64,000 bases of DNA from Catellatospora methionotrophica. Lineage in GTDB: Bacteria > Actinomycetota > Actinomycetes > Mycobacteriales > Micromonosporaceae. This document shows, one piece after another, positions 56,434 through 61,222 of this stretch. Every line of letters starts with the position of its first letter. The first letter of the stretch is position 1. A program made the position numbers and the translations under genes. The notes below the pieces were generated by a model. That model saw only the letters and a list, made by a program, of their open reading frames with translations, had not been told where the DNA came from and ran no database searches. The stretch covers positions 248,001-312,000 of the forward strand of contig NZ_JAAOTJ010000005.1 in NCBI RefSeq assembly GCF_011297335.1. The letters run 5' to 3'.

Positions 56434-57720
56434 TCAGCGGGCCGGGATGCGGTGCGGGGCCAGGCGTTCCAGGAAGGCCCGGTTGGCCTCCCAGCCGTCG
56501 ACCTGCGGCGGGTCCGTGCCGAGCCAGACCGGCTCCGCGGCGGGGTACGCGTGCAGCTGCTCGTCGACCCCCGCCCGGCTGATGACCACGCACGCCTGCC
56601 GGTGCCGTGAGGCGAGCACGCACAGCCGTCCCGCCTCCAGGTGGAACGCGCTGGCGTCGCGCCGCCCGCTGAGCGGATGCCAGGCCAGCACCACCTCGTA
56701 CTGCCGTCCCTGCAGCCGGTTGGCCGTGTCGACGGTGACCCCGGTGACGCCCCGGCGCTGCAACGCGGCTTCCACGTGCGCCTTCTGGTCCCGGTGCACC
56801 ACGCCCACGGCGACGTCGGCCCGGCTCAGCGGGCGCGGCCCCGACGGGTCCACCGTGGACACGTCGGCCGTGACGAGCTGGTGGGCCAGGTCGGCGATGG
56901 TCGCGACCAGCGCCGGGTCGGTGCGCGGCACGTGCGCGGCGGGCAGTTCCAGCAGCGCCCAGCCGTGCTCGGCGGCGTGCGCCAGCGCGGGGTGGGCGAG
57001 GCTGGCCAGTTCGAGCCGCCGGTCGCTCGGCGCGGCTCCGGCGGTGAACGCGCGGGTGTAGAACGCGTCGGAGATGACCGGTGCGGTGTGCGGGGCCAGC
57101 CGCCAGCTCACCGGCAGCGGGATGACGGGCGTGTCCGGGTGGTTGCGCAGCAGCGTGCCCGCCGCGGTGTCCAGCGGCCAGGTGGCCAGCGAGCGCACCG
57201 AGTGCTCGTCGGCGACCGTGAACGGGGCGAGCTGCCCCGGGTCGCCGACCAGCAGCAGCCGGTCGAACAGGTGCCCGACGCGCACCAGTGCCGCCGCCGA
57301 CATCTGGTACGCCTCGTCGATGACGCCGAGCGGCCAGGTGCGCTCGTCGGCCTTGACGTACGCCCATTTCGCGGCGGTGCCGACGATGACGTCGCAGCCG
57401 CCCAGCTCGCCGAGCTTGGTGCCGGTGCGCACCTTCTGCCGGGGCCAGCCGGCCGGCGGCGTCCACTCCTGGCCGTGCAGGCGGCCGGTGGACAGCCCGG
57501 CTCCGGCGAGCGCGATCACGAGGTCGTCGGCCTGGTCGTTGGTCTGCACCACGATCGGCACGTGCTCGCCGACGGCGACCAGCCGTTTCGCGAGTTCGCG
57601 GACCAGTGTCGACTTGCCCGCGCCGGGCGGGGAGTCGACGACGACGGCGCGGTCGGTGCCGCGTACCCGATTCCAGACCTCTTCGATCGCGGCCTCGTGC
57701 CGCGCTCCGGCGCTGGTCAC
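56434..57720 (-). CDS. SF1 helicase-type ATPase (third gene of nuclease-helicase operon)
   Basis: A 428-residue ATPase. Motif I is VDSPPGAGKSTLVRELAKRL, motif II LGVIDEAYQMSAAA, motif III LLLVGDPGQLAPFT, motif V GVTVDTANRLQGRQYEVVL and motif VI LCVLASRHRQACVVISR, the order and spacing of UPF1/Dna2-like SF1B helicases. No nuclease domain is fused. The GTG overlaps the stop of the upstream gene by 4 bp. Together with the Cas4-like protein it suggests a split Dna2-type activity on single-stranded DNA ends; this is inferred. Confidence 0.82.
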   Translation of the reverse strand: MTSAGARHEAAIEEVWNRVRGTDRAVVVDSPPGAGKSTLVRELAKRLVAVGEHVPIVVQTNDQADDLVIALAGAGLSTGRLHGQEWTPPAGWPRQKVRTGTKLGELGGCDVIVGTAAKWAYVKADERTWPLGVIDEAYQMSAAALVRVGHLFDRLLLVGDPGQLAPFTVADEHSVRSLATWPLDTAAGTLLRNHPDTPVIPLPVSWRLAPHTAPVISDAFYTRAFTAGAAPSDRRLELASLAHPALAHAAEHGWALLELPAAHVPRTDPALVATIADLAHQLVTADVSTVDPSGPRPLSRADVAVGVVHRDQKAHVEAALQRRGVTGVTVDTANRLQGRQYEVVLAWHPLSGRRDASAFHLEAGRLCVLASRHRQACVVISRAGVDEQLHAYPAAEPVWLGTDPPQVDGWEANRAFLERLAPHRIPAR

Positions 57721-59330
57721 CAGCCACCTCGCGAATCGCCCGACGGTACCGCGCCGCTCGGCGCGGTCGTGCTGCCTGACGCGGCCGGGCTGGCCGGGGT
57801 GACGGTGCTGTCGGGGACGGCGCGGGGTTCCGGGACGCGCCCGGCCGCCCCGTCCGCCGGTGGCGGTGCGGTGGTCGCGGCGGTGGTGGCCGTGGTGCCC
57901 AGGACCACGTCGGTGTCCAGGTCGTCGTCGAGTTCGGGTTCGGGGGCGGGCTTCGGGCGCGACGAGCGGGTCGGCCAGGGCAGCTCGTCGGGCAGGTTGT
58001 CGGGGAAGTACTGCAGCGGCCCGAACGGGGCGAGCACCACCTCGGTGTCGGTGTCGGGCAGCAGGCCTAGCTTGGGCCGGGTCACCGCACCGCTGGTCAC
58101 CATCAGCTCGACGGTGTCGTCGGTGGCCGCGCGGACGACCATGCCGACCTTGCCCCACCACAGGTCGGTGCCCGCGGGCCGGTCGAACGCGGCCGAGGTG
58201 CGCACCCACAGCAGGGGGCGCAGCACCGACCGGCCACCGGCGTTGACCACCGTGTGCTCGGGGTCGCGCTTGATGACGACCCCGGCGACGGCCTCGCCGG
58301 TGGCCAGGTAACGCGCCATGACCAGCGGATCGTCCAGCGCCATCTGCCGTTCCAGGGCGGCCGTGCGGGTCTCCAGCTCGTGCAGGAAGCGGTACGCGGG
58401 CACGTCGGACAGCCGCGCGCTGAACGACACCGTGCCCGCCAGCACCCGTTCCCGGTGCCGGGTCCACGACCAGCGGTCCGACTCCCACCGTTTGGCGACG
58501 TGCTCGCCCGGCGGCAGCATCCGCACCAGGTCGATCGCCGCCCAGGTGTCGCGCCAGGGCCCGGCCAGCACCTCGGCGGCGGCCAGCTTGAGCCGCCGCA
58601 CGTCGCCCTGCTCCTTGGCCCGTTCCAGGGCGGGCCGCAGCACGACGGCGTCCCAGGCCGGGTCGCTGGCGGGCCCGGCGGGGGGCATCGCCTCGGCGTC
58701 GCGGGCGGCCTGCCAGGCGTCGGTCCCGGCGGGCGGTTCGATCCAGGCCAGCAGGCGGCCCAAGTGGCCGTCCTCGGTGGGCAGCTGGCCGGTGCGCCAG
58801 TGCGCGGTGAGCAGGTCGGTCGCGGTCAGCAGCACGCTGGAGCCGGGCAGGTTGCGGCGGGAGGCGATCCAGCCCAGGTGCGCCCCGGCGGCGGCCAGCA
58901 CCGGGTCGTCGAGGGAGCGCAGGTACTGCCCGAGCAGGCCGACCCAGTGCGCGGTCGCCTCGTTGGGCACGATCAGCTGCGGGGCGTCCACACAGCACAG
59001 GTCCACGTCCAGCTCACGGCCGCTGCCGGTGGCCCGGACGACGGGTTCGGTGACGGTGTAGCGGCTCAGGTAGGTGGCCAGGTCGCGGGCGAGCCCGCCG
59101 AGCGCGGCGAAACGCTGCGCCCGGTCGCGCGGTTCGGCGACGGTCAGCAGCTTGGGGGAGTCGCGGAACGAGCCGTAGCGGATCGCGACCGGGGCGGACG
59201 GTTCACCGGCCAGGTGGTATCCGGCCAGCAGCCAGGGCCGGGGGGACAGGTGCCGGTGCGCGCGCGAGGCGGCGGGCACCGCGCGGGCCTGCGACAGCGC
59301 CAGCAGTCGCTGGTAGACGTCGAGGCTCAT
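57717..59330 (-). CDS. Unknown protein between nuclease and helicase
   Basis: A 537-residue protein I do not recognise. Residues 1-110 are [20 protein letters not shown] onward; the centre is helical ([20 protein letters not shown]). Near 360-440 is a beta-rich stretch ([39 protein letters not shown]) that could be the beta-barrel placed before the helicase core in Dna2/UPF1. The last 80 residues are an acidic, then Thr/Ala/Pro linker. It overlaps both neighbours by 4 bp, so the three proteins are made in step and probably form a complex. Confidence 0.75.
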
Positions 59331-60256
59331 GCGGTGCTCCCTCCGCCGACCGCCCAGCCGTACGCCGCCGCCGCGCGGGCCAGCTCGTCCGCGATGGCCT
59401 GCTCGGCCTCCCCGGACGGGGCACGCTCGCCGTGGGCCAGCGCGAGGGCGTGCGCGGCGATCCCGACGGGGCCGCACAGGTTCGCCGCCGCGCCGCCCGC
59501 GCGGGCGACCGTGCCGGTGCGCTCGGCCTCGACCCGGCAGTGGGTGTACATCGGACAGCTCGGGCAGCCGTCGCCGAACCGCGCGTCGACCTCGGTCAGG
59601 GCCGTGACCAGCGCTTCCCCGGCCAGCGGGGTGCGCAGCCGGGCGGGCAGGCCACCGGCGTCGAGCCGGTCAAGCGACCAGGCCAGCCGCCGCACCTGGG
59701 GCGCGACGTCGAGCAGGGTGCCGACCGGGGCCAGGCCGAAGTTGCGCGGCAGCACCAGCAGGCAGCGGCTGCTGATCCGCTCCGGCACGGGTGCGGCCTG
59801 CCGCAGCGCGGCCACCACGACGGCCAGCTCGCGGGCGGTCCCGGCGACCTTGGCCGGGTCGGCGTGGCCGTCCAGGCAGGCGTACGACCTGATCTCGACC
59901 GGGTACAGCGATGTGTCGTCACCGGCCAGCACGACGCGTTCGGGGGTGACGGGCAGGCCGCCCAGGCGCAGCCGCGGCCCGCGCCAGACCCACAGGCCCG
60001 CGCCGACCGGCAGTTCCGCCGTCTCGACAGCCTCGGTGGCCTCGATGCCGAGGTGTGTGCCGACCAGTTCGGGCAGCCGGGCCGTGGCCAGGTGAGTGAA
60101 CGTGCCGTCGCGCTCCCGGGCGTACGGGCTCTGCCCGCCGGGCGGCGAGCCGATCGCCTCGGCCAGCAGCCCGAGGTCGACCTGCGCGGCGTCCAGGGCC
60201 TGCCGCCGACGGCAGCCGGGCGCGTCGAGCAGCCCGGCTATCCGTCGCGGATCCAA
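59327..60256 (-). CDS. Cas4/AddB-like Fe-S PD-(D/E)xK nuclease homologue
   Basis: A 309-residue protein. The Cys layout of Fe-S nucleases (Cas4, AddB, Dna2) is visible: one Cys near the N-terminus ([12 protein letters not shown]) and a late C-x2-C-x5-C ([17 protein letters not shown]). Between them, [20 protein letters not shown] has the D...ExK spacing, but the Lys is Arg, and the usual following Q-x3-Y is not obvious, so catalysis could be altered. TTG start with GGGAG upstream, 27 bp after dapD on the same strand. No CRISPR or other cas genes are present. Confidence 0.72.
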
Positions 60257-60283: not shown

Positions 60284-61222
60284 TCAGTCGTTGGCGTGCA
60301 GCGCCGCGTTGAGCACGATGCCGGTGCCGGTACGCGGCCGGGCCTCGACGGCACCGGTCACCGAGTTGCGCAGGAACAGCACGTTGGACGCCCCGGACAG
60401 GGTCGCGGCCTTGACGACCTCACCGGTGGCGACCAGGGTGACCTTCGTGCCCGCGGTGACGTAGCACCCGGCTTCGACCACGCAGTCGTCGCCGAGCGAG
60501 ATGCCGATGCCCGCGTTCGCGCCGACGAGGCTGCGCTGCCCGACGCTGATGGTCTCCTTGCCGCCGCCGGACAGGGTGCCCATGATGGACGCGCCCGCGC
60601 CGATGTCGGAGCCCTCGCCCACCACGACGCCCGCGGAGATGCTGCCCTCGACCATGGAGGTGCCCAGCGTGCCCGCGTTGAAGTTGACGAAGCCCTTCTG
60701 CATGACCGTGGTGCCCGAGGCCAGGTGGGCGCCGAGGCGCACCCGGTCGGCGTCGGCGATGCGCACGCCCGCCGGCACGACGTAGTCGGTCATCCGGGGG
60801 AACTTGTCGACGCCGTACACGGCCAGGTGGCGGCCTGCGGCGCGCTCGATCAGGCGCAGCTCGTCGACGCGGTCCGGCGGGCACACCCCGGCCGAGGTCC
60901 AGGCGTTGTTCGGCAGCAGCCCGAAGATGCCGTCGAGGTTGGCCTCGTGCGGCTGGACGAGGCGGTTCGACAGCAGGTGCAGGCGCAGGTAAGCGTCGGC
61001 GGTGTCGCGTGGCGGCGCTGCCAGCGTCGGGATGACCACGTGCACCCGCTCGGTGCGCAGGCCGGGCAGGGCGGGCTCGGCGCCCTTGAGGTCGAGCGCG
61101 GATACGCCGCAGATGTCGAGGCCGAGCTGGCCGGCGGGGAACCACACTTCGAGGGTCTGGTCGCCGCTGACGGTGGCGAGACCGAAGCCCCAGGCGGGCC
61201 GGTCGGAACGTGTGCTGCTCAC
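60284..61222 (-). CDS. dapD: Tetrahydrodipicolinate N-succinyltransferase
   Basis: A 312-residue acyl-CoA-dependent enzyme of lysine/meso-DAP synthesis. The C-terminal half is a left-handed beta-helix of hexapeptide repeats ([60 protein letters not shown]), and the N-terminal domain has the actinobacterial length. It supplies the substrate for DapC and, after transamination, DapE. TAGCGT lies 7 nt before the GTG, with no Shine-Dalgarno (leaderless). Confidence 0.94.

What the first reader, a model, noticed from the sequence alone, without database searches (positions are those of the whole stretch)
56434..60256. Split Dna2-like operon: Cas4-type Fe-S nuclease homologue, unknown protein, SF1 helicase
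Three genes overlap by 4 bp at each junction and so are translated in lock-step. The first has the Cas4/AddB/Dna2 cysteine layout (one N-terminal Cys, late C-x2-C-x5-C) with a D...E-x-R core, the last has UPF1/Dna2-type SF1 motifs, and the middle one carries a possible beta-barrel. Eukaryotic Dna2 fuses exactly these parts. There is no CRISPR array or other cas gene, and the operon sits inside the dap region rather than in a mobile island, which argues for a housekeeping repair or end-processing role. The K-to-R change raises the question whether the nuclease is active.
Basis: partly seen in the sequence, partly recalled or inferred. Interest (0 to 1): 0.8.

Follow-up and report, generated by a model that had tools for sequence, protein, structure and literature searches.

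The report
Split DNA2-like helicase, nuclease motifs decayed
Three neighbouring bacterial genes appear to encode the parts of the eukaryotic DNA-repair enzyme DNA2; in this genus the DNA-cutting part has probably lost its activity, while some related copies sit next to other DNA-end-processing and anti-plasmid genes.

Summary
Confirmed and extended. On the minus strand g1 (59327-60256), g2 (57717-59330) and g3 (56434-57720) overlap by 4 bp at each junction, 27 bp behind dapD. g1's model resembles Cas4/AdnAB/Dna2 nucleases. g2's model has long stalk-like helices and a beta-barrel, the parts Dna2 carries between nuclease and motor. g3 is an SF1B motor; among solved structures DNA2 scores best. 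So the DNA2 plan seems split over three genes. The order recurs in several actinobacterial families, g1 and g2 are fused in a few relatives, and g2 and g3 are present or absent together in 99 of 101 family genomes. In the window's clade the Fe-S cysteines remain but the nuclease motifs have decayed: most likely a pseudo-nuclease on a working motor, although the window copy keeps two acidic residues. 'Not in a mobile island' holds for the dap-locus copies only: of 176 loci examined, 20 directly adjoin SbcCD (Mre11-Rad50), Wadjet, Hma or PglW genes, and the SbcCD/Wadjet-linked copies keep the nuclease motifs. g1 and g2 match no Pfam, NCBIfam or PADLOC family. Closest known: Bad, the bacterial DNA2-like enzyme. 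I found no experiment on any member; complex, activity and role are inferences.

The parts
59327..60256 (-). g1: Cas4/RecB-fold protein with four conserved cysteines, 309 aa, TTG start; nuclease motifs decayed
60212..60214 (-). g1 Cys15, cluster ligand by analogy
   Evidence: 134 of 135 rows, the last an X at undetermined bases
59537..59566 (-). g1 C231-x2-C234-x5-C240, cluster ligands by analogy
   Evidence: 135 of 135 rows
59816..59941 (-). g1 nuclease core: E106 (family D), E121 (kept), R123 (family K), E143 (family Q), V147 (family Y)
   Evidence: model strands 107-112 and 117-122, helix 134-154
60095..60097 (-). g1 T54 (family E), motif I position
57717..59330 (-). g2: 537 aa, no Pfam/NCBIfam/PADLOC match at E up to 1; alpha/beta and helical N-terminal part, long helices, beta-barrel, disordered tail
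58299..58406 (-). g2 residues 309-344: long helices read as the stalk
   Evidence: model; reading by analogy with Dna2
58029..58289 (-). g2 residues 348-434: predicted beta-barrel
   Evidence: model; no significant structural match
57720..57938 (-). g2 residues 465-537: low-confidence, probably disordered tail
   Evidence: pLDDT under 50
56434..57720 (-). g3: SF1B (DNA2/UPF1-type) motor, 428 aa, GTG start, begins about 30 residues before Walker A and so has no barrel of its own
57610..57624 (-). g3 Walker A GAGKS, residues 33-37
   Evidence: residues 33-36 invariant and 37 nearly invariant in 20 aligned g3
60284..61222 (-). dapD, upstream on the same strand, 27 bp from g1; shared transcript is inference

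Best explanation
g1, g2 and g3 are the separated parts of a DNA2/Bad-like enzyme that assemble into one complex: g3 is a 5'-to-3' SF1B motor, g2 supplies the stalk and barrel that the motor lacks plus an unassigned part that joins it to g1, and g1 is the Fe-S nuclease domain that encloses single-stranded DNA. In most relatives examined g1 keeps its nuclease motifs and the complex should process DNA ends. In Catellatospora and its relatives at the dap locus the motifs have decayed while the cysteines remain, so the complex most likely works as a helicase or translocase without cutting, transcribed behind dapD. Shown: gene layout, conservation, motif changes, predicted folds, co-occurrence. Inferred: complex formation, cluster binding, direction of movement, loss of cutting, expression, cellular role.
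For: g1: Foldseek best hit Cas4 7mi4 (E 8.6e-4, prob 1.00), then MGME1, Cas4 I-C, AdnAB, Dna2. g3: DNA2 first in the PDB by single sequence (2.9e-5) and by profile (2.7e-13, then SMUBP-2 and UPF1). g2 model: helices 309-344, barrel 348-434; in Dna2 a barrel on a two-helix stalk lies between nuclease and helicase (PMC4716839, passages). Gene order equals the domain order of Dna2. Natural g1-g2 fusions: Hamadaea L115 and L117, G019 (L061), G478 (L280). g2 and g3 together in 58, neither in 41, only one in 2 of 101 family genomes (thresholds E 1e-3 and 1e-40); both exceptions are 80-87% complete assemblies. Motifs intact in 115 of 131 non-redundant g1; the 16 others need at least 3 changes on the tree. 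g3 motifs kept in 7 degenerate loci shown (one has DESY for DEAY). g1 of Catellatospora under purifying selection (dN/dS 0.27-0.44 in five pairs; 0.55 in one more). In Bad, inactivating the nuclease unmasks unwinding (PMC7430649, abstract).
Against: No experiment on any member was found. The window's g1 reaches no family by sequence; 8 of 56 members of its alignment match PF12705 weakly (best 0.0014), but as many match MarR_2 (best 0.0041), and one matches an unrelated capsid model better. Only 1 of 465 Foldseek matches of g1 is under 0.001 and TM-scores are low (0.36 for the best). For g2 none is; the best is an NADPH oxidase and Dna2 ranks 19th (E 0.23, prob 0.28). The window keeps E121 and an acid at 106, and D106 is kept in 8 of 12 rows of its clade, so loss of cutting is not certain. 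g1-specific relaxation is modest: g2 and g3 also evolve faster in Catellatospora; the g1/g3 ratio of dN/dS is about 1.9-3.3 there against 0.95-2.58 in ten intact pairs. g3 is not adjacent in 18 of 66 family places. The complex was not modelled.
Confidence: 0.6

Rival explanations
1. g1 is still an active nuclease: E106, E121 and R123 suffice, and the complex cuts DNA like DNA2 or Bad.
For: The window keeps E121 and an acid at 106; D106 is kept in 8 and E121 in 7 of 12 rows of the clade; purifying selection; four cysteines kept.
Against: In the same clade E121 is V, A or G in 5 of 12 rows, K123 is R and Y147 is replaced in 12 of 12, Q143 is E in 11 of 12, E54 is replaced in 10 of 12.
Confidence: 0.17
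2. The operon is an anti-phage or anti-plasmid system in its own right, and the window copy is one such system.
For: Among 176 non-redundant loci: SbcCD near 13, Wadjet II 6, Wadjet I 5, Hma 2, PglW 1; 20 directly adjoining; two on Streptomyces plasmids.
Against: 7 of 7 loci of the window's genus fetched with flanks are at dap; no g0 in 11 genomes of the genus; no such neighbour seen there; decayed motifs. The main Streptomyces copy has a shared neighbourhood without these genes. g2 of L122 had no match in phage records.
Confidence: 0.14
3. A solo Cas4 or CRISPR-adaptation remnant beside an unrelated helicase.
For: Best fold hit is a Cas4.
Against: No Cas1 match in the genome; all three genes in order in 76 of 80 named loci.
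Confidence: 0.02
4. The three genes are merely neighbours; g3 is an independent UPF1-like helicase, perhaps acting on RNA.
For: g3 not adjacent in 18 of 66 family places; UPF1-type helicases can act on RNA (established knowledge).
Against: Co-presence and co-absence of g2 and g3 in 99 of 101 genomes; g3 lacks a barrel that g2 appears to supply; linkage to SbcCD and Wadjet points to DNA.
Confidence: 0.07

Closest known systems
Bad, bacterial DNA2-like helicase-nuclease of Geobacillus stearothermophilus (PMC7430649; abstract and sections 14 and 22 seen)
   Same: Nuclease with four cysteines, then a central domain of unknown structure, then an SF1B helicase, in that order
   Different: One chain with an active nuclease; here three genes with decayed motifs. 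Whether g2 and Bad's central domain are related was not tested.
Eukaryotic DNA2 (5eaw, 5ean; PMC4716839, passages seen)
   Same: Nuclease, barrel on a stalk, SF1B helicase in the same order; DNA2 is g3's best solved match
   Different: Split over three genes; no N-terminal OB domain evident in the g1 model (not specifically searched); g2 has about 300 further N-terminal residues; motifs decayed in the window's clade
Cas4 and the AddB/AdnAB nuclease domains
   Same: RecB-type fold (Cas4 and AdnAB hits); four-cysteine pattern described for AddB, DNA2 and Cas4 in PMC7430649
   Different: No Cas1 in the genome; partner is a DNA2/UPF1-type motor
Actinobacterial fused proteins of 1129-1206 aa (L223-L230, L232), which I read as the 'second class' of PMC7430649
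   Same: Helicase profiles align at 99.7 probability; 2 of 3 scanned reach PDDEXK_1 at or over cut-off
   Different: RNase_H_2 middle domain in 3 of 3 scanned; no match to the g1 or g2 profile at E up to 10, hhalign of g1 weak

Membership tests
DNA2 / Bad helicase-nuclease | RecB-type nuclease fold | tested here: met
   Model pLDDT 86.4; Foldseek Cas4, MGME1, AdnAB, Dna2, with low TM-scores
DNA2 / Bad helicase-nuclease | Four cysteines spanning the nuclease domain | tested here: met
   C15, C231, C234, C240; cluster binding itself not testable
DNA2 / Bad helicase-nuclease | Intact nuclease motifs | tested here: not met
   Decayed in the window (5 of 6 family positions changed, one of them D to E); intact in 115 of 131 non-redundant g1
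DNA2 / Bad helicase-nuclease | SF1B helicase core of DNA2/UPF1 type | tested here: met
DNA2 / Bad helicase-nuclease | Stalk and beta-barrel between nuclease and helicase | tested here: inconclusive
   In the predicted model; no significant structural match
DNA2 / Bad helicase-nuclease | All domains in one polypeptide | tested here: not met
   Three genes; g1-g2 fused in L061, L115, L117, L280 only
Bad | Bad-type central domain | not tested
   I had no Bad sequence
TIGR03491 RecB-like nuclease | Match to TIGR03491 | tested here: not met
   No match at E up to 0.001 in the genome (7 of 14 controls positive)
Cas4 of CRISPR adaptation | cas1 in the genome | tested here: not met
   No Cas1 match (9 of 14 controls positive)
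Known anti-phage systems (PADLOC) | Match of g1, g2, g3 to a system model | tested here: not met
   g1, g2 none at E up to 1; g3 only weak helicase matches; the same for a plasmid copy's g0-g3

The most novel reading that the evidence does not exclude
Several actinobacterial families carry an undescribed DNA-end-processing module, g0-g1-g2-g3 with a dedicated SbcD-SbcC pair: a bacterial counterpart of the eukaryotic Mre11-Rad50 plus Dna2 resection pair. It joins Wadjet and other defence systems to finish off foreign DNA: Wadjet cuts circles and spares linear DNA, SbcCD recognises the new ends, and the split DNA2 unwinds and degrades from them. The window shows a domesticated branch behind dapD that has no g0, has lost the cutting and keeps the motor.
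Probability: 0.38. Interest if true: 0.88.

Novelty: new variant of a known kind. Interest (0 to 1): 0.72.

Why it matters
Bad proteins were called rare and of unknown role (PMC7430649, section 22). A split form present in Streptomyces, Nonomuraea, Nocardia and Micromonospora relatives, with g1 and g2 unmatched in Pfam, NCBIfam and PADLOC, would make DNA2-like enzymes much commoner in bacteria. Linkage to an extra SbcCD and to Wadjet suggests a testable role: what happens to plasmid DNA after Wadjet has made it linear. Repeated decay of the nuclease motifs with cysteines and motor kept is a natural experiment on what the Fe-S domain does besides cutting.

Tried and rejected
Pfam, NCBIfam and PADLOC on the window's g1 and g2: nothing at E up to 1. 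PDB profile searches with g1 and g2: only hits I read as chance. CRISPR link rejected. Fused homologues near dapC: 9 of 10 fetched loci carry a fused protein, none with fdx or dap genes in the 7.6-9.5 kb taken. A fusion in L192 was discounted because the frame runs through undetermined bases. Ten literature searches listed no paper on this operon; preprint servers and most subscription papers are not held, so this is no proof. Not done: complex modelling, comparison with Bad, a matched random-neighbourhood control for the SbcCD/Wadjet association.

Rows dropped or merged: one search kept the best 80 of at least 557. Of the 60 loci of the first unnamed set 55 have all three genes; L064, L065, L066 and L069 lack g3 nearby, and L027 is a 3.5-kb contig. 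In one search I left out two partial or weak matches (G016:C1, G442:C238) and merged split matches of G444 and G457. One search merged four near-duplicates. One search left out loci under 5000 bases and repeats of the same g2 stretch; its gene caller misses some genes, so g0 (54 loci) is a minimum: g0 of L178, L182, L191 and L253 was seen only by tblastn or in the record. Broken sbcCD pieces near L254 were not counted. In one search, 40 of 48 further g1 read intact; the 8 others are L262 (N-terminus missed by my gene call, the rest intact), L264, L266, L267, L273, L275, L280 and L288. That set overlaps the first (L266 is the same place as L115, L251 as L066), so the counts are not added.
Full report
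WHAT IS THERE. Three genes lie on the minus strand: g1 59327-60256, g2 57717-59330, g3 56434-57720, overlapping by 4 bp at each junction. dapD, on the same strand, ends 27 bp before g1. NCBIfam names FdxA, DapC and DapE over cut-off around them; DapD_actino scores 433.1 bits, just under its cut-off of 441.5. The genome is 8.39 Mb in 56 contigs. The nearest named loci are Catellatospora (C. paridis, 97% identity in g3); I call the window's genus so by inference.

PARTS. g1 and g2 match no Pfam, NCBIfam or PADLOC family at E up to 1. The g1 model (pLDDT 86.4, pTM 0.74) finds Cas4 7mi4 first (E 8.6e-4, probability 1.00), then MGME1, Cas4 I-C, AdnAB and Dna2; only 1 of 465 matches is under 0.001 and TM-scores are low. 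Eight of 56 members of the g1 alignment match PF12705 weakly (best 0.0014); as many match MarR_2 as weakly, and one matches a capsid model better. The g2 model (pLDDT 83.5, pTM 0.79) has an alpha/beta part, a helical part, long helices at 309-344, a barrel at 348-434 and a low-confidence tail from 465. Foldseek gives it no match under 0.001: the best is an NADPH oxidase, alanine racemases and riboflavin synthases follow among others, and Dna2 is 19th with probability 0.28. The aligned ranges were not printed, so that the barrel causes those hits is inference. g3 has AAA_11, AAA_12 and AAA_30 over cut-off; its profile finds DNA2 first (2.7e-13), then SMUBP-2 and UPF1. That branch of SF1B helicases moves 5' to 3' and carries a barrel and stalk, which in Dna2 lie between nuclease and helicase (PMC4716839, passages). 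g3 begins about 30 residues before Walker A. My reading, an inference, is that the DNA2 plan is divided at its domain borders, with the barrel on g2 and the motor on g3.

CONSERVATION. Of 80 named loci (the best 80 of at least 557), 76 have g1-g2-g3 in order on one strand, one of them (L158) with g1 cut by a contig end, and 4 are cut by contig ends before g1 or g2. Of 60 unnamed loci 55 have all three; in four g3 was not found nearby and one is a short contig. In the family, 48 of 66 g2 places have g3 within 500 bp on the same strand; 15 have it 1.1-65 kb away on the same contig (two on the opposite strand) and 3 on other contigs, at least two of these at contig ends. Still, g2 and g3 are both present in 58 and both absent in 41 of 101 genomes; the two exceptions are 80 and 87% complete (Fisher p 5e-26, not corrected for kinship). 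g1 was found in 48 of 296 class genomes with one sequence and g2 in 12 of 296 phylum genomes by profile, so the operon is widespread in some families, not throughout the phylum. One distant genome (L246) has a diverged g1-g2-g3 followed by a protein with RNase_H_2. g1 and g2 are fused in L061, L115, L117 and L280.

THE NUCLEASE. The family pattern at six positions is E54, D106, E121, K123, Q143, Y147; that these are the catalytic motifs is by analogy with RecB-family nucleases (recalled). The window has T, E, E, R, E, V. Of 131 non-redundant g1, 115 have the full pattern; the 16 others need at least three changes on the tree (quick method, several long branches). In the window's 12-row clade K123 and Y147 are replaced in 12, Q143 in 11, E54 in 10, E121 in 5 and D106 in 4. 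The cysteines stay (135, 135, 135 and 134 of 135 rows, the last an X at undetermined bases). g3 motifs are kept in the 7 degenerate loci shown, one with DESY. g1 dN/dS is 0.27-0.44 in five Catellatospora pairs and 0.55 in a sixth, against 0.06-0.21 in ten intact pairs. But g2 and g3 are also faster there, and the g1/g3 ratio is only moderately higher (about 1.9-3.3 against 0.95-2.58). So g1 is constrained. Most likely it is a pseudo-nuclease kept for structure or DNA binding; because the window keeps two acids, residual cutting is possible. I therefore lowered my best explanation from 0.64 to 0.60, raised the active-nuclease rival from 0.12 to 0.17 and lowered the mere-neighbours rival from 0.08 to 0.07 on checking. 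In Bad, inactivating the nuclease unmasks unwinding (PMC7430649, abstract).

SURROUNDINGS IN RELATIVES. I examined 176 non-redundant g2 loci, a chosen set and not a random sample. A further gene, g0 (about 260 aa, no Pfam match over cut-off in the five members scanned), precedes g1 in at least 54. None was found in 11 genomes of the window's genus. sbcD-sbcC (Mre11-Rad50 type; Metallophos and SbcC Walker B domains) lies near 13: in 8 divergent upstream, in 5 directly downstream of g3. Wadjet I follows g3 in 5, Wadjet II in 6 (in L279 after sbcD-sbcC), HmaA in 1 (a second HmaA, in L260, is five genes away) and PglW in 1. In all, 20 of 176 adjoin directly. PADLOC named the genes in L253, L286, L068, L073 and L258; the others were assigned by BLAST to these. 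The cases are not independent: the Wadjet I loci are close relatives, and four of six Wadjet II loci are from one genus. Two copies are on Streptomyces plasmids. The adjoining SbcD is a second, lower-scoring copy in G038, G139 and G281; second copies elsewhere occur in two of 14 genomes (G169, G312) without adjacency. All 18 SbcCD- or Wadjet-linked copies keep D, E, K, Q and Y, and E54 in the 17 where it could be read; all 11 dap-locus copies are degenerate. Degenerate copies also occur outside both groups (L062, L073, L075, L106, L118, L163, L264, L267, L273, L275, L288). G478 has both kinds (L279, L280). With one or two sbcD per genome I would expect well under one adjacent case in 176 by chance, a rough estimate without a control.

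MECHANISM. Most likely g1-g2-g3 form one DNA2/Bad-like complex moving 5' to 3' on single-stranded DNA. Where g1 is intact it should process DNA ends, in some genomes with SbcCD; next to Wadjet it could destroy linearised plasmids, since Wadjet cuts circular but not linear DNA and the Rad50 complex senses ends (PMC10586767, passages). In the window the cutter is probably inactive and the complex is probably a motor expressed with dapD. All of this is inference.

WHAT IS KNOWN. Bad has the same order in one chain and a central domain without known relatives (PMC7430649, sections 14 and 22). Cas4 phylogenomics reports UvrD-Cas4 fusions (PMC5704561, passages). The BREX survey has no occurrence of Dna2, Cas4, SbcCD or Wadjet (PMC12839542, term search). 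Ten searches of the paper library listed no description of this operon. I file it as a new variant of a known kind: it probably works like a split DNA2/Bad, but two defining features, one chain and intact nuclease motifs, are not met in the window.

Noticed in passing
G000:C45:320194-324235 (about 8-12 kb beyond the window end): Two PDDEXK_1 matches in long frames (1099 and 1098 aa), perhaps AdnA/AdnB, so the genome may have a separate resection enzyme close by (naming is inference).
   Followed up: no
L246:4059-9604: In a distant genome a diverged g1-g2-g3 is followed, overlapping, by a protein with an RNase_H_2 domain.
   Followed up: partly
L120: A MAG labelled Tardiphaga (Pseudomonadota) carries g1-g2-g3: transfer or mis-binning.
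   Followed up: no
G013, G234, G358 (genus g4); G020, G451, G468 (genus g11): g3 lies 36-49 kb (g4) or 34-65 kb (g11) from g1-g2 on the same strand.
   Followed up: partly
L073: A second operon copy (family f33, the group with the named Streptomyces) with decayed nuclease motifs sits directly before HmaA and HmaB.
   Followed up: partly
L271:13289-19902: Two large divergent ORFs beside g0, the first (1084 aa) without any Pfam or PADLOC match at the thresholds used.
   Followed up: partly
window 57720-57938: g2 has a longer low-confidence Pro/Ala/Thr-rich tail than the relatives shown in the alignment.
   Followed up: no
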